38,099 nucleotides of DNA, from contig CAIYID010000054.1 of NCBI GenBank assembly GCA_903926205.1, forward strand, positions 1 through 38,099. The letters run 5' to 3'. This DNA is from an uncultured Bdellovibrionales bacterium. GTDB lineage: Bacteria > Bdellovibrionota > Bdellovibrionia > Bdellovibrionales > Bdellovibrionaceae. Made by a program: the position numbers and the translations under genes. Shown piece after piece: positions 27,081 to 37,353 of the stretch; within the stretch, counting starts at the first letter, position 1, and each line of letters opens with the position of its first letter. Below the pieces are notes generated by a model. It was not told where the DNA came from. It saw nothing but the letters and a program-made list of their open reading frames with translations, and searched no databases.

Positions 27081-27157
27081 GGGGAGTTAGCTTAGTTGGT
27101 TAAAGCAGCCGGCTCATAACCGGCGGACCGGGGGTTCAAATCCCTCACTCCCTACCA
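27081..27157 (+). tRNA. tRNA with anticodon CAU (elongator Met or Ile2)
   Basis: Folds completely: acceptor 27081-27087 with 27147-27153 (one G:U at the end), D arm GCTT/AAGC, anticodon stem GCCGG/CCGGC with loop CTCATAA (anticodon CAT at 27115-27117), T arm with loop TTCAAAT, discriminator A and encoded CCA at 27155-27157. It is not initiator tRNA: the anticodon stem lacks three G:C pairs before the loop and the first base is paired. Whether C34 becomes lysidine (Ile2) or it stays Met cannot be settled from the sequence alone. It is the integration target of the element that follows. Confidence 0.97.
27145..27157 (+). repeat. attL core (13-bp direct repeat, left copy)
   Basis: TCACTCCCTACCA, the last 13 bases of the tRNA gene including CCA. 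The identical 13-mer occurs at 37341-37353. Beyond the core the flanks differ, which fixes the element boundary. Confidence 0.9.
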
Positions 27158-29301: not shown

Positions 29302-31068
29302 ATGGATCAACATGACCTTATTCAACTTGCTATTAACGTACACTATAACAAGGGCGCTTATGCTCTTCTGATTGGATCAGGCATTTCTCGTGCTGCAAGT
29401 ATTCCAACGGGTTGGGAAATTACTCAGGAATTACTTAGACAGCTGGCTTTCATTCATGGGGATCAGTTCGAAAATGATTTGGAGAGGTGGTATCTAAATA
29501 AGTTCGGAGTCAATCCAGGATACTCTGAACTTTTGGATCATCTTGGTAAGACGCCAACGGAACGGCACAATTTTCTTCGACCATTTTTCGAGCCTACTGA
29601 ACAAGAAAAAGAAGAAGGAAAAAAACAACCGACAAAGGCTCACCGTGCAATTGCCAACCTTGTCGCTACCGGCATCATTAAAGTGATAATTACTACCAAC
29701 TTTGATCGTCTTCTTGAACGGGCTATTGAGGACGTCGGAATAACTCCGACGGTGATTGCTTCAGCAGATGCAGTTGACGGTGCCACGCCAATCGTTCATT
29801 CATGTTGTACAATAGTAAAGCTGAACGGTGACTACTTAGATATCAGAGCAAAAAACACAATTGATGAACTCAAAGAACTTGATCTAAAAATTTCCGAATT
29901 GATCGACCGAATATTTGACGAATTTGGTTTAATAATTTCTGGATGGTCAGGAGATTGGGATACTGGTCTTAGATCTGCTTTAGAACGGGTAAAGGGGCGA
30001 AGATATACATATTATTGGTTGGCAAAGGAAGCGCCTAGCGTCCGCGCTAAAGCCTTGATTGACTTGCGCGCGGCTAAAGTGCTGAACATCTCGGATGCTG
30101 ATACATTTTTTGTATCTTTAGAAGACAAATTACTTTCCCTTGCGGAACTCAATCGACCACATTATTTGTCTCGGGAATTGGCTATAGCAAGCCTTAAAAG
30201 ATATCTGACCGAGGACAAGTATCGAATTAGGCTTCACGATCTAGTAATGGACGAGGTTAGCCGTATTTGCACCGCCTTCGAAACAGAGCCATTTTCGATG
30301 ACAGGTCCTCGAACTCTTAGCGCGGAAATATTAAAAAGACGTATAGATCAATATGTTATGGAAATAGAAACACTGATTTCAATTGTAGTCACTGGTTGCT
30401 ACTGGGGAAGATCTGACCAGTATGACTTATGGGTGAAGGCAATTGAAAAAATTGCCAATAGTACCCCCGATCTCGGAGGCTTTGTGGTGTTGACCTCACT
30501 AAGAGTGTTACCCGGCGCTATGCTTGTGTACGCGGGCGGAATGAGTGCAGTGGCATCCGGGAGATATGATCTTTTCTTAAGACTGCTACAGAAAGTGAGA
30601 GTAAAGAAATTAGATGATGTGTCAACAGCATTGAAGGCGTTAAATCTATTCGGTATCTTGGATGAAAGGAGCGCAAGGTTGCTGCCCGGAAGAGGGCAGG
30701 AGTGTACACCGCTTACCAATTTTGTATTCGATATTCTAAAGCCCTTTTTTAAGGATATAACGTCTGGCGAAGACGACTACCAAAGGTTGTTTGAACGTTT
30801 CGAATTTCTTTGGTCCATGATATTTGTGGACTCTTCGGAAGATCGGAGGGGCCAAAACAATGACTATGCATGGGCACCACCTGGAAGGTATGCATGGAGT
30901 GGACGTCGGTGGGGCAAGGGTATTTCTAAGGAGATTGAAGAGGAGATTCTTCGTCTAGGAGAAAAGTGGCCTCCCTTACATCAAAATCTCTTTGGTGGGA
31001 ATGTTGATCGGGCCAAAGATTGTCAGAGACTAGTAGAAAACTTCATCCCTTACTTGAATTGGACCTAA
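29302..31068 (+). CDS. SIR2-domain protein, candidate anti-phage NADase
   Basis: 588 aa. The N-terminal SIR2-like domain (about 1-290) has the NAD-binding loop LIGSGISRAASIPTGWE (23-39), TTNFDRLLE with N133 and D135, KLNGDYLD (173-180) and GWSGDWD (214-220). In ThsA-type NADases an Asn and a His are catalytic; here the His of the KLHG-type motif is replaced by N175, which may be normal for this subfamily or indicate altered chemistry. The C-terminal 300 residues are unrecognised and could sense infection. SIR2 proteins of this architecture include defence effectors that deplete NAD (DSR and Thoeris types). The SD is weak, as might suit a toxic protein. Confidence 0.85.
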   Translation: MDQHDLIQLAINVHYNKGAYALLIGSGISRAASIPTGWEITQELLRQLAFIHGDQFENDLERWYLNKFGVNPGYSELLDHLGKTPTERHNFLRPFFEPTEQEKEEGKKQPTKAHRAIANLVATGIIKVIITTNFDRLLERAIEDVGITPTVIASADAVDGATPIVHSCCTIVKLNGDYLDIRAKNTIDELKELDLKISELIDRIFDEFGLIISGWSGDWDTGLRSALERVKGRRYTYYWLAKEAPSVRAKALIDLRAAKVLNISDADTFFVSLEDKLLSLAELNRPHYLSRELAIASLKRYLTEDKYRIRLHDLVMDEVSRICTAFETEPFSMTGPRTLSAEILKRRIDQYVMEIETLISIVVTGCYWGRSDQYDLWVKAIEKIANSTPDLGGFVVLTSLRVLPGAMLVYAGGMSAVASGRYDLFLRLLQKVRVKKLDDVSTALKALNLFGILDERSARLLPGRGQECTPLTNFVFDILKPFFKDITSGEDDYQRLFERFEFLWSMIFVDSSEDRRGQNNDYAWAPPGRYAWSGRRWGKGISKEIEEEILRLGEKWPPLHQNLFGGNVDRAKDCQRLVENFIPYLNWT

Positions 31069-31533
31069 GTTTCGTCCGGTCTCGAATTGGCCAATGGCCA
31101 TAATTGAAAATCGCTTACGCATATGAACTTGCCGCTATTTTTTTTCTTTATTCGTTTCCCGAATTGCTGCCCACGCAAATCTTTACCCAATGGTCCTAAT
31201 TTCATAGTCGCAAAGATCCAGCATAAGGAAACGCCGAATATTCAATTACCCATTGCAACTATTTCCATTAGTCATTTCATAAGACGTTTTCCGTCAAGTA
31301 TTTTCATCGGTCGATTGTTGAGTTCAATTTCAATCTTTTTTTTTCAGTCGAACCTGTAACCAAGTTTGATTCACCAATTTTCTGAGTATTATAAAGCAGA
31401 TATCGAATCTTAAAGCCATGTTGGTATTTGGCGGGTCCCGCTATGAAATTGCTGGGAATAATTTTAGATTCGATAGCAGTAAGTCAGTTTGTAATTGCAT
31501 CTCATTCCGAATCATAGGAATAGTGATTTCAAT
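31069..31533 (+). promoter_or_regulatory. 465-bp non-coding region with promoter and structured leader of the replication block
   Basis: No credible gene. A candidate promoter has TTGATT (31366-31371) and TATAAA (31390-31395) at 18-bp spacing. Directly downstream, TATCGAATCT (31401-31410) and AGATTCGATA (31466-31475) form a perfect 10-bp inverted repeat enclosing an inner GCGGG-T-CCCGC hairpin (31431-31441). A transcript starting here would carry this structure in its leader. Two adjacent TGGCCA palindromes lie at 31088-31100. Confidence 0.5.
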
Positions 31534-32505
31534 ATGAAAAAATCGAAGTATCCGGCGAAAAGACGAATTTCAAGACCTCGAAAAGTTTTTGCCGACATTC
31601 ATCCTAAGTTGGAAACGACTGTAAAAATCATTAAGATCCTTCCAACTTTTGATACTGAGGAAATCCATCCGTGTGAATATGTTGATTCAAATAGCGAAGA
31701 GTTTAAACATAAGATTCATACTGCAACATCTGCTGAGGAATTTTTTAAAATTGCTAAATTTGCAACACCAAGTAAAGTTCCAAAATCTGAATATGTTAAA
31801 CATTCTCTTGAATTCTTGAATGTGAATATTCCTAAACAAATAGACACAATTCTAGCTGGAGAGAGTGTTTCAGCCTTTATTAAAGATCGGATTAAATATT
31901 GGAATTCCAGTATGGAGTTTGTCACGGATGACCTCGTGAATGGAAAGCGGATTCATTACAAAGATTTAGGTGCTCTTCGCAAATCTATTCTGGTGACCGG
32001 AAAGTTTCCCATTAAAATAGAATTAGCCGACAAACTCTTACAGCAATTCTATTGCGAGAATCGTGCGATAGTTCTTTTAACTGATTTGTCTATTAAAGAA
32101 GATCCTAAACTGTTTGAAGACAATATCCTGTTGAAGTCGTCGCTTCAGACAAAGTCTCTTTTTCTTTATGGTGTCCGCTTGGACCCATGTCTATTGCGCA
32201 CGGAGATCGGTCATTGGTTTCTTTCTCACTTTCCTTGCTTCAATTTAAAGGAAGTCCACCAACTAGGATCGGCCATCGAAAGGTCAGGTTTAGAGAAAGT
32301 GACGGAGCGCCAACAAAATATCGCTATGCGACGAATTCTACTTATATTGAAGTCCATTGAGCCTAGTGTGATGAGTTTAAACGACCCTCAATTACATGAA
32401 TTTATAGAGAAACAAGGTTATTGGAAAAACTCAAAACACTCGTTAGTGACACTTACAAGAGCCCGCCAAGCTATCTTTGGAAAGGCTCCCACAAATCCTT
32501 CCTAA
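31534..32505 (+). CDS. Hypothetical protein of the replication block
   Basis: 323 aa, not recognised. The N-terminus is strongly basic (KKSKYPAKRRISRPRKVF), suggesting nucleic-acid binding. The rest is a mixed helical soluble sequence without transmembrane segments or obvious catalytic motifs. It precedes the element's DNA polymerase by 77 bp in the same direction and may act in replication, for example as a primase-like or accessory factor (speculative). Start set at the ATG at 31534; the frame extends to a TTG at 31495. Confidence 0.6.
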   Translation: MKKSKYPAKRRISRPRKVFADIHPKLETTVKIIKILPTFDTEEIHPCEYVDSNSEEFKHKIHTATSAEEFFKIAKFATPSKVPKSEYVKHSLEFLNVNIPKQIDTILAGESVSAFIKDRIKYWNSSMEFVTDDLVNGKRIHYKDLGALRKSILVTGKFPIKIELADKLLQQFYCENRAIVLLTDLSIKEDPKLFEDNILLKSSLQTKSLFLYGVRLDPCLLRTEIGHWFLSHFPCFNLKEVHQLGSAIERSGLEKVTERQQNIAMRRILLILKSIEPSVMSLNDPQLHEFIEKQGYWKNSKHSLVTLTRARQAIFGKAPTNPS

Positions 32506-32582
32506 ACATTTGTAGGAGTTTAATAGTTTTTGATCCTCTATGCTTCGCCCTGGGTTTAATTCAGGTAAAAGTGAGGCGAAAG

Positions 32583-34256
32583 ATGACTATAACGGCAATT
32601 GATTTTGAAACGTGTTCGGTTGGATTCTTTGATAAAGAGCCAAAGAAAAATTGGAAGGGGCATCCTAGGTTGGCTACTCCAATTATTCTGTCTTTCCAAA
32701 ATTCTGACACTTGTGGAGTTGTCGAATTGGAGAAGAGTGAAATTAGGCCACCTGTGACTTCAATGGTAGTATTTCACAATGCGGGCTTCGATCTACCTAT
32801 CGGTGAGAAAGTCGGTTGTTGGAGCGTTCAACATATTAGGCATGATAGTTTTGATTGCACTGCGACGCTGGCGAGACTGTCACACAACTTGAGACCGGCA
32901 GGCCTCAAAAACTTAGCCATTCAAATTCTCAATGAGGAAGTGACTTCGTATGAGGCGACGAAGGAAGAACTTTCGAAATTTTTGGAATATGCAAAGAAGG
33001 ATGCCGAGTTTACCTATCGATTATACCCGATATTGAAATATGAGATCGAGGCAAAGGGTATGCGACGCCTTTACGAAGAAGTAGAAAAGCCATTCATTTT
33101 GATCAATATGGAATGTCAGCAACATGGTCTCCAAATTGAGCGACAGAAAGTCAATGAGCTGGTCCTTCAACTTGACAATGAAATTGAAAAATTAAAAACC
33201 AAATTTCCAAAAAACCTGAATACAGCCTCGTCGACTCAGTTGAAAGTCCTTCTTTACGATGAGTTGGGCCTTCCCGTGCAGTTTCAAAAAGGCAGGCCCT
33301 CAACGTCACGAAAGGTTCTTAAAAAATTGAGCTCCAACGCGATGGTGAATCAACTTCTCGAATTGAAGGAAGTTCGAGCGAAAATATCACAAATTAAGCA
33401 ACTTGAACGATTTACTGACCCAATTACTTCGAGAATACATCCATTTGTGAATCCTTTGGGTGCCGACACTGGGCGAGCGACCTCATCCAATCCCAATTTA
33501 CAGAATATTGACAAGAGTTCAGCGCTTCGGGAAATCTTTATTGCATCTGCGGGCCACAAGCTTCTGGTTTTTGATTTCTCACAGATTGAGCCCAGAGTTT
33601 TGGCTCACTTTCTTCCAGGTTCTTCATTTGCGAACCTTTTTGAAACTGATGATGATTTCTATCTTAAGTTGGCCTCGAAATTTCTAAATCACATCGAAGT
33701 TGAAAAGTCGATTAGGGAAGTAGCCAAGCTTGTGATTCTTGCGACCTTTTACGGCATGGGAAAAAACCTACTTTCCTCAACGCTCAATATCACGCCGCTA
33801 CAAGCCGAAGATATTCTCAATTCATTTGAACTGAGTTTTCCGGAAATAACCACTTTCAAAAATAGAGTTGTCAGTTCAGCGCGAGATAATGGATTTGCGA
33901 CTGGCTTGCTAGGACGTCGGCGCTATATTGAAAATCTCAATAGCAAGGACAAGTTTCTTTGTGCTCGTGCCGAACGACAAGCTTTCAATGCCGTAATTCA
34001 GGGGTCAGCGGCCACGTTATTCAAATATAAATTAATTCAGCTCAGGCATGCGCTGACAAGGGAGGTCCGTTTTCTTCATCACGTGCATGATGAGGTAATT
34101 TTAGAAGCACCTGAGGCTATTGCAGCTGTATCAAGTGACGTCTGTTTGAAAGTTCTAGAGTCACCAGTCGACTGGTTTTCTGTCCCCATCAAGGTTGAAG
34201 GTGGAATCGGAAGCAATTGGAAAGAGGCGAAGAATCAAAAAATGGAAAGAAGGTAA
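32583..34256 (+). CDS. Family A (PolA-like) DNA polymerase with 3'-5' exonuclease
   Basis: 557 aa, phage/plasmid type without a 5'-nuclease. Exonuclease motifs: D7-E9 (AIDFET), N66 and D70 (FHNAGFD), Y136 and D140 (YAKKD), so proofreading is probably active. Polymerase motifs: A at D331 (DFSQIEPR), B at R378-Y390 (with K382), and C at H502-E504 (HVHDE). The position equivalent to E. coli F762 is Leu (L386). Viral PolA with Leu there has been linked to temperate life styles. Start at ATG 32583, where the exonuclease motif begins and GAGG precedes; the open frame upstream overlaps the previous gene. The preceding residues lack similarity. Confidence 0.93.
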   Translation: MTITAIDFETCSVGFFDKEPKKNWKGHPRLATPIILSFQNSDTCGVVELEKSEIRPPVTSMVVFHNAGFDLPIGEKVGCWSVQHIRHDSFDCTATLARLSHNLRPAGLKNLAIQILNEEVTSYEATKEELSKFLEYAKKDAEFTYRLYPILKYEIEAKGMRRLYEEVEKPFILINMECQQHGLQIERQKVNELVLQLDNEIEKLKTKFPKNLNTASSTQLKVLLYDELGLPVQFQKGRPSTSRKVLKKLSSNAMVNQLLELKEVRAKISQIKQLERFTDPITSRIHPFVNPLGADTGRATSSNPNLQNIDKSSALREIFIASAGHKLLVFDFSQIEPRVLAHFLPGSSFANLFETDDDFYLKLASKFLNHIEVEKSIREVAKLVILATFYGMGKNLLSSTLNITPLQAEDILNSFELSFPEITTFKNRVVSSARDNGFATGLLGRRRYIENLNSKDKFLCARAERQAFNAVIQGSAATLFKYKLIQLRHALTREVRFLHHVHDEVILEAPEAIAAVSSDVCLKVLESPVDWFSVPIKVEGGIGSNWKEAKNQKMERR

Positions 34257-34258
34257 CA

Positions 34259-34543
34259 ATGGAGGTTTCGGAAATAAAAGTTTTTCTGGTGAAAGGAAAT
34301 TCGAAATTGAAGGCGAAAGCCCATGTCACTGTTCGAACTGAAAATGGCTGGGAATTGACATTGAAGGGTCTTCGTATTCACGACGATGGAATAAAAGCTC
34401 CGTGGGTTGGTGTCCCAACGGAGCGTTATTCAAAAAATGGTAAGGATGAGTATACGGAGATGCTTTGGATAAATCAGACTGCGCAATCTGATTTATATCC
34501 CAAAGTGCTCTTTGCATACAAAGAAAAAATTAGAACTGCCTAG
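34259..34543 (+). CDS. SpoVG-like protein
   Basis: 94 aa. Pattern MEVSEIKVFLVKGNSKLKAKAHV, LTLKGLRIHDD-GIKAPWVGVPTERY, YTEMLWINQTAQSDLYPKVLFAYKE follows the SpoVG fold (MEVTDVR..., IRVI.G..G.FVAMPS, VL.EYE). SpoVG binds DNA and RNA and modulates gene expression; copies occur in phages and plasmids. It starts 2 bp after the polymerase stop, with SD GAAGG inside the polymerase end. Assignment by pattern only. Confidence 0.6.
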   Translation: MEVSEIKVFLVKGNSKLKAKAHVTVRTENGWELTLKGLRIHDDGIKAPWVGVPTERYSKNGKDEYTEMLWINQTAQSDLYPKVLFAYKEKIRTA

Positions 34544-34552
34544 CTATCGTTT

Positions 34553-34629
34553 CAAAACGTTCGGTTGCTAGGGCTCCATATGGAGCGTTCCAAGGGCGGT
34601 GCGAAGCGCCGCCCTTGGAACAAAACGTT
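34553..34629 (+). other. Putative rolling-circle replication origin
   Basis: In the 146-bp gap before the HUH gene: direct repeats CAAAACGTT (34553-34561 and 34621-34629), a 12-bp palindrome CTCCATATGGAG (34574-34585), and a long hairpin with a 12-bp perfect stem (34588-34599 and 34609-34620) extended by three pairs to a GAA loop. Its tip is GCGAAGC (34601-34607), known as an exceptionally stable DNA mini-hairpin. AACGTT recurs after the rep gene (35501-35506). No T run follows, so it is not an intrinsic terminator. The nick site is not identified. Confidence 0.55.
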
Positions 34630-34689
34630 TCTCGACGGTCTCGAAAGTGGATCGAAGGGATAACTACGCCTAAAATTTTAAGGAAGATT

Positions 34690-35493
34690 ATGAATGAAAA
34701 AAAAGCGTCTAAAAATATCTCTGAAGAAACTCTGAATAATTCCCTTGTTTCTTTTGAGCGTAATTCCAACACGAAGGAAAATCTGAAGTTCGCAAACTGT
34801 CGAACAAAAGGCTATTCGCTGGTCTCGGAACTCGACCCAGACAATCTATTTTCCTATTTCAGAACATTTTGCAAATCCTATACTTGTCCCTACTGTGGCC
34901 CACGCAAGGCTGTTCTTATGAAGCATCTTATCATGGCAGCTATGGAAAAGTTTGGTCTCAAAGTCTTCCTGACATTGACACTAGACCCAAAGAGCTGCTC
35001 AGCCGAGGAGTCAGCCAGATACATCAAAAGGGTCTGGAATAAATTTCGAACCATCCAAAAGCGACATTTCAAAAGGGGGCTAAACTATATTCACGTGCTG
35101 GAATTTCAAAAGAGTGGATACGCCCACTTGCATGTTCTAATCGACTCATATGTGGACTGGGAATGGCTTAAACAGGCTTGGGCAAGTGTCGGTGGAGGTA
35201 CGATTGTTGACGCTAAGAAGGCAGATCTGGGAACGGCAAAATATTTGTCCAAGTACCTTTGTAAAACCTTAACAAGATTTGCTGGCCAGAAGTTTCGACT
35301 CATCTCAACGTCCAGGGGAATCAAGCTTTCTGGCTTATTGGAAAAGAAGTCCGCGAAGTTCAGTTTTCAAAAAATTGAAATGTTGGAGGCCCGCAAGATT
35401 TTAAAAAATCGAATCGAATCGGATATTAAGAATCGGCGGGATGAAGTTATCGGGTTTAAATCAACGAGGCGGCTTCATGTTGAAAATGTATAA
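34690..35493 (+). CDS. rep: HUH-superfamily rolling-circle replication initiator
   Basis: 267 aa. A cysteine cluster near the N-terminus (C37, C61, C66, C69 in CPYCGPRK) suggests a zinc knuckle. HUH motif 1 is FLTLTLD (93-99), motif 2 is HLHVLID with H146 and H148, and motif 3 is AKYLSKYLCK with Y185 and Y189. The YxxxY pair is the phiX174 gpA-type (superfamily I) arrangement for continuous rolling-circle replication. It would nick the origin just upstream. ATG at 34690 has SD AAGGAAG; the frame runs back to a TTG at 34615, inside the hairpin, which is unlikely. Confidence 0.9.
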   Translation: MNEKKASKNISEETLNNSLVSFERNSNTKENLKFANCRTKGYSLVSELDPDNLFSYFRTFCKSYTCPYCGPRKAVLMKHLIMAAMEKFGLKVFLTLTLDPKSCSAEESARYIKRVWNKFRTIQKRHFKRGLNYIHVLEFQKSGYAHLHVLIDSYVDWEWLKQAWASVGGGTIVDAKKADLGTAKYLSKYLCKTLTRFAGQKFRLISTSRGIKLSGLLEKKSAKFSFQKIEMLEARKILKNRIESDIKNRRDEVIGFKSTRRLHVENV

Positions 35494-35517: not shown

Positions 35518-35916
35518 ATGACAGGCGAACAATTCAACCTTCCAGTGCACTTTCCCTGCTTTTTATGCGGGGATTTGGTCGACTTAAGGATTGATAAAAA
35601 GAAGCACCCCTATTGGATTTGTGATGCTTGTGGAATTCAAGCCTTTATAAGGAAAAGAATCGGAATTGCCAAATTAGAGTCCATTAATTCAGACCCGGAA
35701 ATCTATCGGTTTCTTGATGCCGGGGATTGTGTTCGAAATTCTGAGATTCTCAGGCTTAAAGCACGAATTGAATTAATTAAAACCGAAATAAATAATTCTG
35801 ATGATTTAATTTCTGATTTATTTGTGAATACTCCTGAAAAAAATAAATACATTAAACGGCTCAAATCGAAATTAAAGGTATTAGAGACTGAATATCAACA
35901 TAAATTAATTAATTGA
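35518..35916 (+). CDS. Zinc-ribbon and coiled-coil protein of unknown function
   Basis: 132 aa. An N-terminal zinc ribbon has four cysteines in two CxxC pairs (C14, C17, C35, C38; FPCFLCGD and WICDACGI). Residues about 75-130 form a charged coiled coil. Strong SD AGGGGG. It lies between rep and the excisionase-like gene in the same direction, so a role in replication or its control is likely but unproven. The ribbon resembles those of transcription or replication accessory factors. Confidence 0.75.
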   Translation: MTGEQFNLPVHFPCFLCGDLVDLRIDKKKHPYWICDACGIQAFIRKRIGIAKLESINSDPEIYRFLDAGDCVRNSEILRLKARIELIKTEINNSDDLISDLFVNTPEKNKYIKRLKSKLKVLETEYQHKLIN

Positions 35917-36183: not shown

Positions 36184-37278
36184 ATGGGAATCAGATTTGA
36201 CCCTGCGACAAACACGTGGACGGCATCTTACAGCAGGCGACCTGGACCTGGTGTTGCACCAATTTCGAAAACGGTTAAAAAAATTGGTTCGGAAAAGGCT
36301 GCACAAAAGGTGCTTGAACAGATTATGTCCGACGTTATGGATAAATCAAAATTTAAGTTAGCGCCGCGATGGTCGTTTGTCGTTGAAAAATATTTCGATC
36401 AAACGGCGGCGACGGGGATTTCCGGAAAAACATTGGAAAATTATCGGTACAATATCATCGCGCATACTTTTCCTAAGTGGGAGAAATTGTCGGTTCAAGA
36501 TATTACAGCTAAGCAGATTTTGGAAGTGATCAACGTGGACTTAAAAGACAAGGCTTCGTCGCATCGGAAATATGTTTTGAAAATTTTGCGGAACATTTTT
36601 ACTTTTGCAGTCAACGAAGATTTTGTGTCCCGCAATCCAACCCCAAGCATCCACTTCAAAAAGCAAGAAAAGCTCAAAGGCGTTTTAACTAAGGATCAAG
36701 TGATGCTGTTTCTCACCACGGCAAAGGAACTAAATCATGAGTGGTATCCACATTGGTTTATGGCACTTTACACAGGAATGAGAAACGGTGAGCTGTATGC
36801 TTTGAAATGGGATCGAATAAATCTTGAGAATAATTTTATCGTGATTGATTCAGCATGGAATAACGTTGACGGAATTAAATCGACGAAATCAGGCGATGAT
36901 CGCATCTTAGAAATTGCTCCCGATTTGCGATATTTGCTCGCAGAACTGAAAGTAAGAAATGGTGACGGTGAATTTGTACTTCCTCGGATTAGTTCGTGGA
37001 ATAAAGGCGAGCAGGCGCGAGAGCTTCGAAAGTTTTTAATAGGCCTTAATCTGCCACAAATAAGGTTTCATGATTTGAGAGCGACCTGGGCGACATTGCT
37101 TCTGTCATCCGGACTGGAACCAATCAAAGTTATGAAAATGGGTGGTTGGAAGGATTTAAAGACTCTTCAGATTTACATCCGAAAATCAGGGATTGATATC
37201 AAAGGATGCATGGAAGGGTTCTCTTTACACAATCCCTCCGCGAAATCGGCAAAAGTTTTCCACTTGTCTGCAAGATAA
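36184..37278 (+). CDS. int: Tyrosine recombinase (integrase)
   Basis: 364 aa. The N-terminal AP2-like arm-binding region (about 1-58) is followed by a SAM-like core-binding domain (60-155) and the catalytic domain. Catalytic residues: R200 (GMRNGEL), K232 or K235, H296 and R299 (HDLRATWA), W322 in place of the second His, and nucleophile Y331 (LQIYIRKSG). All are intact. It is transcribed toward attR, 62 bp away, at the end distant from the tRNA. SD is weak. Confidence 0.95.
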   Translation: MGIRFDPATNTWTASYSRRPGPGVAPISKTVKKIGSEKAAQKVLEQIMSDVMDKSKFKLAPRWSFVVEKYFDQTAATGISGKTLENYRYNIIAHTFPKWEKLSVQDITAKQILEVINVDLKDKASSHRKYVLKILRNIFTFAVNEDFVSRNPTPSIHFKKQEKLKGVLTKDQVMLFLTTAKELNHEWYPHWFMALYTGMRNGELYALKWDRINLENNFIVIDSAWNNVDGIKSTKSGDDRILEIAPDLRYLLAELKVRNGDGEFVLPRISSWNKGEQARELRKFLIGLNLPQIRFHDLRATWATLLLSSGLEPIKVMKMGGWKDLKTLQIYIRKSGIDIKGCMEGFSLHNPSAKSAKVFHLSAR

Positions 37279-37340: not shown

Positions 37341-37353
37341 TCACTCCCTACCA
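37341..37353 (+). repeat. attR core (13-bp direct repeat, right copy)
   Basis: TCACTCCCTACCA, identical to the 3' end of the tRNA at 27145-27157. It is the chromosomal tRNA end displaced by integration; a few bases to its left (TC, then TTT) also partly match the tRNA. Confidence 0.9.

What the first reader, a model, noticed from the sequence alone, without database searches (positions are those of the whole stretch)
34553..34629. Putative rolling-circle origin capped by the ultra-stable GCGAAGC mini-hairpin
Immediately before the HUH gene is a 12-bp perfect stem extending to 15 bp with GAA loop, tip GCGAAGC, flanked by direct repeats CAAAACGTT and preceded by palindrome CTCCATATGGAG. d(GCGAAGC) is known as an extraordinarily stable DNA hairpin, reported in the phiX174 origin region, and this initiator has the phiX174 gpA-type two-tyrosine motif. 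The structure thus may be the double-strand or single-strand origin.
Basis: partly seen in the sequence, partly recalled or inferred. Interest (0 to 1): 0.68.

Follow-up and report, generated by a model that had tools for sequence, protein, structure and literature searches.

The report
Conserved three-hairpin pseudoknot before rep gene
Just before the replication-starter gene of a small mobile element sits a set of three back-to-back hairpins tied by a pseudoknot; a distant relative keeps the shape although many of its letters changed in matched pairs, so it is a real functional part, probably of the element's replication origin, but the 'special' GCGAAGC tip is not the part that matters.

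Summary
The hairpin is real and far beyond chance, and it is one third of a larger structure. Between the spoVG-like gene and rep lie three abutting hairpins with no spacer: A 34539-34572, B 34573-34586, C 34587-34621. The loop of A (34555-34561) is complementary to the 7 nt at 34624-34630, which makes a pseudoknot. One relative was found (G338 = JACMQW010000033.1, an Oligoflexia MAG). It has the same pol-spoVG-rep-Zn-xis-int order (Rep 47% aa identity) and the same array at the same place. In B+C, 8 of 20 pairs changed on both sides, none on one side, none broke; 2 of 7 pseudoknot pairs also co-vary. In the relative the tip is TTA, so GCGAAGC is not conserved. All G.U pairs are on the rep-sense strand. 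No Rfam family matches. The carrier is a ~10.2-kb element in a tRNA-Met gene that carries a SIR2 defence candidate. Best reading: an origin-type structure (sso and/or Rep-binding part of the dso) that forms on single-stranded + DNA. A regulatory leader of rep mRNA is nearly as likely. Nicking was not testable here.

The parts
34539..34572 (+). Hairpin A: CCTAGC / GCTAGG plus inner ATCG / CGGT stem, 12-nt loop that carries the 5' pseudoknot strand
   Evidence: RNA fold of both copies gives the same architecture: interrupted stem, 10-12-nt loop
34555..34561 (+). Pseudoknot 5' strand AAACGTT (in the loop of A)
   Evidence: 7 perfect pairs with 34624-34630; relative AACCATT/AATGGTT, 2 of 7 pairs changed on both sides; crossing the loop of one copy with the tail of the other leaves at most 4 pairs
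34573..34586 (+). Hairpin B: GCTCC ATAT GGAGC (5 bp), abuts A and C
   Evidence: relative GCCCC AAGT GGGGC, same length of 14 nt
34587..34621 (+). Hairpin C: GTTCCAAGGGCGGTGC GAA GCGCCGCCCTTGGAAC (16 bp with one T.G); the hairpin of the finding
   Evidence: relative GTTGGGAGGACGAGA TTA TCTCGTCCTCCCAAC, 7 of 15 pairs changed on both sides, none broken
34624..34630 (+). Pseudoknot 3' strand AACGTTT, overlapping conserved TTCTCGA (34629-34635)
34656..34672 (+). Conserved block AGGGATwwCTACGyCTA, 15-17 nt before the rep start codon in both elements; candidate nick site or operator (role inferred only)
   Evidence: identical to the relative's AGGGATTTCTACGTCTA outside the three degenerate positions; 0.03 expected in the window at <=2 mismatches
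34690..35493 (+). rep: HUH initiator, REP_ORF2-G2P; HLH at residues 146-148, Y185 and Y189 in YLSKYL
34259..34543 (+). spoVG-like gene, directly upstream of the structure
   Evidence: SpoVG, E 3e-5, below Pfam's cut-off; 47% identity to the relative
32421..34256 (+). Element-encoded family A DNA polymerase (start codon uncertain)
   Evidence: 47% identity to the relative's copy
35518..35916 (+). Small protein with a CxxC...CxxC pattern, conserved in the relative
   Evidence: 32% identity
35913..36176 (+). HTH_17 protein, excisionase-like
36184..37278 (+). Tyrosine integrase
   Evidence: 49% identity to the relative
27145..27157 (+). attL: 3' end of tRNA-Met(CAT), TCACTCCCTACCA
37341..37353 (+). 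attR: TCACTCCCTACCA, followed by a terminator hairpin with a T run that was probably the tRNA's own

Best explanation
It is a structured single-strand module of the replication region of a tRNA-integrated element that replicates by rolling circle. Shown: three abutting hairpins plus a probable pseudoknot between the first loop and the bases after the third hairpin, kept by compensatory change, on the rep-sense strand, directly upstream of an HUH rep gene in two distant hosts. Inferred: after excision and circularisation, Rep nicks near this region (the conserved block AGGGATwwCTACGyCTA at 34656-34672 is my candidate site) and copying runs through rep. The displaced + strand folds this module. 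The folded strand then serves as the single-strand origin for second-strand synthesis and/or as Rep's recognition structure at the double-strand origin, perhaps with help from the element's own polymerase. What counts is the shape, not the letters; the GAA tip is incidental.
For: Structure kept while sequence changed: B+C 20/20 pairs in both copies, 8 double changes, 0 single; slid controls reach only 45-53% paired. Pseudoknot 7/7 in both, 2 double changes. Same place in the same gene order in another family of the phylum. All wobble pairs are T.G on the + strand and would be A.C on the other strand, so one strand is selected. It fills the only sizeable gap of the pol-spoVG-rep-Zn-xis-int operon in both elements, where an origin would be expected if it is not inside a gene. 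A second conserved block follows it. Close functional precedent: sso1 of ICEBs1 and the pBAA1 sso have three stem-loops, ICEBs1's acts in one orientation only, and pBAA1's tolerates new sequence if the fold stays (PMC4595007). No terminator tail was found.
Against: The same facts fit a leader of rep mRNA about equally well: sense strand, just upstream of the start codon, a pseudoknot, G.U pairs. RNA parameters give one common fold of hairpin A for both copies, DNA parameters do not. Only two sequences exist. No nick site is known for this Rep, and no known sso or dso sequence was recognised. Known dso sites of gpA-type initiators need no such structure and can lie inside the rep gene (own knowledge).
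Confidence: 0.48

Rival explanations
1. It is a cis-acting RNA in the leader of rep within the pol-spoVG-rep operon. The pseudoknot, perhaps bound by Rep or another protein or by an antisense RNA, sets how much Rep is made and hence the copy number.
For: Sense strand, 50-60 nt before the rep ribosome-binding region; pseudoknot and G.U pairs are typical of RNA; RNA fold z -6.3 and -5.7; the same fold of hairpin A under RNA parameters in both copies.
Against: No pairing with the ribosome-binding site or start codon that is kept in both copies, and no terminator or promoter found. No riboswitch or Rfam family matches. Loops are not RNA tetraloops of the stable kinds; hairpin C has triloops in both copies. 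The AGGGATwwCTACGyCTA block is not explained by it.
Confidence: 0.36
2. An RNA processing, stability or insulating element inside the operon (for example an RNase III or transcript-end site) that separates pol-spoVG from rep expression.
For: A long, stable stem in an intercistronic gap.
Against: Does not explain the pseudoknot or the zero-spacer triple array kept in both copies; no T run after the stem on either strand.
Confidence: 0.09
3. One reading: a phiX174-like origin whose key feature is the d(GCGAAGC) mini-hairpin.
For: GCGAAGC is present at the tip; Rep has the two-tyrosine motif.
Against: The tip is TTA in the relative; the heptamer occurs at its chance rate in the window.
Confidence: 0.03
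4. A chance palindrome or artefact.
For: Only two sequences are available.
Against: 0 of 40 whole-window shuffles give such a stem; 8 double and 0 single changes in 20 pairs.
Confidence: 0.01

Closest known systems
Single-strand origins of rolling-circle plasmids and ICEs (pBAA1 sso, ICEBs1 sso1)
   Same: Array of three stem-loops on the strand displaced in rolling-circle replication; function in one orientation; secondary structure matters more than sequence (PMC4595007); next to the HUH nickase gene
   Different: sso1 lies downstream of nicK, this lies upstream of rep; no shared sequence was recognised; no pseudoknot is mentioned in the passages read; not tested for activity
phiX174 / REP_ORF2-G2P initiators and their double-strand origins
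   Same: Rep belongs to REP_ORF2-G2P with HUH and YxxxY
   Different: No phiX174-like nick sequence was recognised by eye; the candidate origin here is associated with a conserved structure; the element is a tRNA-integrated unit with its own polymerase and no capsid gene recognised
STAXI motif (PMC2864571)
   Same: Pseudoknotted module near genes for DNA-handling proteins and integrases; RNA versus ssDNA open
   Different: STAXI is a pseudoknot repeated two to three times, often with UUCG loops; here one long-range pseudoknot spans two other hairpins; no Rfam hit
Rep leader pseudoknots of IncI/IncB-type plasmids (own knowledge)
   Same: Pseudoknot upstream of a rep gene
   Different: Those replicate by theta mode and the pseudoknot touches the ribosome-binding region; here it lies about 50 nt upstream and no antisense RNA is known

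Membership tests
REP_ORF2-G2P (PF23343) rolling-circle initiators | Profile match over the curated cut-off | tested here: met
   54.9 bits against 27.8; PHROG 3419 rolling-circle initiation E 8e-14
REP_ORF2-G2P (PF23343) rolling-circle initiators | HUH motif and two catalytic tyrosines (YxxxY) | tested here: met
   HLH 146-148 and Y185/Y189 invariant in both copies
REP_ORF2-G2P (PF23343) rolling-circle initiators | Nicking activity at a specific site | not testable with these tools
   needs purified protein
Single-strand origin (sso) | Stem-loop array on the displaced strand | tested here: inconclusive
   array present on the rep-sense strand, T.G only on +; that + is the displaced strand is assumed from other RCR replicons, not shown
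Single-strand origin (sso) | Sequence similarity to a known sso type | not tested
   no sso library at hand; full-text search found no matching description
Single-strand origin (sso) | Lowers ssDNA and stabilises an RC plasmid, orientation-specific | not testable with these tools
   bench assay
Double-strand origin of phiX174 type with GCGAAGC hairpin | Conserved GCGAAGC mini-hairpin | tested here: not met
   TTA loop in the relative
Known structured RNA (Rfam 15) | Covariance-model match at the gathering score | tested here: not met
   none in the region
Intrinsic terminator | GC-rich stem followed by a T run | tested here: not met

The most novel reading that the evidence does not exclude
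A pseudoknotted single-strand structure that serves twice: as ssDNA it is the origin (or Rep-binding site) of the element, and as rep mRNA leader the same fold is bound by Rep, so that Rep meters its own synthesis against the amount of single-stranded origin.
Probability: 0.1. Interest if true: 0.78.

Novelty: new variant of a known kind. Interest (0 to 1): 0.5.

Why it matters
Origins of REP_ORF2-G2P replicons outside phages and small plasmids are largely unmapped (own knowledge). Here covariation marks the functional nucleic-acid part to the base, on one strand, with a probable pseudoknot that I did not find described for any rolling-circle origin in the papers searched, in a defence-carrying element that brings its own DNA polymerase. 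Compensatory mutants of three helices and the pseudoknot would directly decide between ssDNA and RNA action.

Tried and rejected
More relatives of Rep: PF23343 and Rep in 369 and 148 genomes of the phylum, genome contigs twice (14, 42), viral contigs with Rep, SpoVG, polymerase and integrase (20, 43, 53, 52 with 54, 81), phages and plasmids by tblastn (16, 17, 47, 48). Only the G338 element (also returned as L023) is a true relative; the phage and plasmid Rep hits are at most 33% identical over part of the protein.

Covariance model R1 of B+C in 369 genomes: only the two elements; the four weak hits in other genomes lack a Rep-like gene and look like chance.

Sequence pattern of the conserved tail in viral contigs: 18 hits, none behind a comparable hairpin.

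SpoVG and polymerase searches of the phylum (84, 86): the element's versions occur only in these two genomes; all other hits score far lower and look like host genes.

Rep structure prediction: pLDDT 42, too poor to use; a sequence search of PDB gave only a weak Helraiser hit, E 0.05.

Rejected: terminator, tRNA or Rfam RNA, chance palindrome, and importance of the GCGAAGC tip. An alternative pairing of the 3' pseudoknot strand with the start codon region in L019 is not kept in the window, so an RNA switch of that kind was dropped.

Full report
What is there. The window is a whole contig of a 3.34-Mb genome. Its right part holds an element of about 10.2 kb between a 13-bp repeat: TCACTCCCTACCA is the 3' end of tRNA-Met (27145-27157) and recurs at 37341-37353. 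A terminator-like hairpin with a T run, probably the tRNA's own, follows the second copy. The element carries an outer-membrane-like gene, an XRE regulator, a SIR2 protein that matches PADLOC's candidate defence family PDC-S65 (E 5e-198), an unknown gene, a family A DNA polymerase, a SpoVG-like gene, rep, a small CxxC protein, an HTH_17 protein and a tyrosine integrase. No capsid gene was recognised. Rep is a REP_ORF2-G2P protein over the curated cut-off, with HLH and YLSKYL.

Hairpin C (34587-34621) is 16 bp with one T.G and a GAA loop. It abuts hairpin B (34573-34586), which abuts hairpin A (34539-34572); there is no unpaired base between them. 0 of 40 shuffles of the window contain a stem like C. 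The region folds at z -5.1 (DNA) and -6.3 (RNA).

The relative. Of about 369 genomes of the phylum, one (G338; public contig JACMQW010000033.1, titled Oligoflexia bacterium) holds the same gene series pol-spoVG-rep-Zn-xis-int with 32-57% identity; its integrase lies beside what looks like the 3' end of another tRNA gene. Between spoVG and rep it has the same three hairpins: A 13427-13393, B 13392-13379, C 13378-13346 of L019, minus strand, again without spacers. B has the same 14 nt. In B+C all 20 pairs form in both copies, 8 have changed on both sides, none on one side only; sliding the partners by 1-3 columns leaves 45-53% paired. Crossing the 5' arm of C of one copy with the 3' arm of the other leaves 11 and 9 of 15 pairs. 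With two sequences this is a count of changes, not a phylogenetic test, but selection on pairing is hard to avoid.

The pseudoknot. The loop of A contains AAACGTT, complementary to AACGTTT just after C. In the relative the same positions read AACCATT and AATGGTT: seven pairs again, two changed on both sides. Each alone has a chance probability of about 0.007-0.008 by shuffling loop and tail. On the pseudoknot plus B alone the shuffle control is weak (68/500), so this helix is likely, not certain. In the relative they do not.

The tip. In the relative loop C is TTA, so GCGAAGC is not conserved. The heptamer occurs four times in the window, as chance predicts. That some DNA mini-hairpins are extraordinarily stable is established (PMC10527192); the report of d(GCGAAGC) in the phiX174 origin I know only from memory.

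Strand. Every wobble pair in the structure is T.G on the rep-sense strand (two in each copy). On the other strand they would be A.C. The functional strand is therefore probably +, either as rep mRNA or as the displaced strand of rolling-circle replication, which in several known replicons is also rep-sense (own knowledge). This does not separate the two.

What it most likely does. A rolling-circle element needs a double-strand origin and profits from a single-strand origin. The only sizeable gap shared by both elements in the replication operon is this one, and besides the structure it contains a second conserved block, AGGGATwwCTACGyCTA, 15-17 nt before the start codon. ICEBs1 and pBAA1 show that a three-stem-loop array can be an sso, orientation-specific and tolerant of sequence change (PMC4595007). 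I therefore favour origin function (0.48) over an mRNA leader (0.36). For the leader speak the RNA-like pseudoknot and G.U pairs and the more uniform fold of A under RNA parameters; against it, no pairing with the ribosome-binding site that is kept in both, and no Rfam match. The nick site, the use of the element's polymerase and the order dso/sso are inference.

Novelty. No described family matches. The kind of thing (structured replication or leader element beside rep) is known; the particular fold, three zero-spacer hairpins with a pseudoknot across two of them beside an HUH rep and a family A polymerase, I did not find in the library searched. Hence a new variant of a known kind, with two members.

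Noticed in passing
29302-31068: SIR2-domain protein that matches PADLOC candidate defence family PDC-S65 nearly full length (E 5e-198), carried by the element.
   Followed up: partly
32421-34256: The rolling-circle element encodes its own family A DNA polymerase, of a clade found in only two genomes of the phylum; unusual for an RC replicon.
   Followed up: partly
34469-34496: A 14-bp inverted repeat (ATAAATCAGACTGC/GCAATCTGATTTAT) inside the 3' end of the spoVG-like gene, about 45 bp before hairpin A; not seen in the relative.
   Followed up: partly
27145-27157 and 37341-37353: 13-bp att repeat in tRNA-Met; a terminator hairpin lies directly after the second copy, so about 10.2 kb were probably inserted between gene and terminator.
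   Followed up: yes
L021:1313-3871: Another Rep (weak REP_ORF2-G2P match) with a YefM/YoeB-like pair lies between two similar hairpins (GATTCAAGGATGA.../GGTTCAAGGATGA...) in inverted GC-rich surroundings; may be a small mobile unit.
   Followed up: no
31123-32505: A stretch of about 430 bp without a convincing gene between the SIR2 gene and an unknown 336-aa gene of the element; the latter has no match in Pfam, PHROGs, NCBIfam or PADLOC.
   Followed up: no
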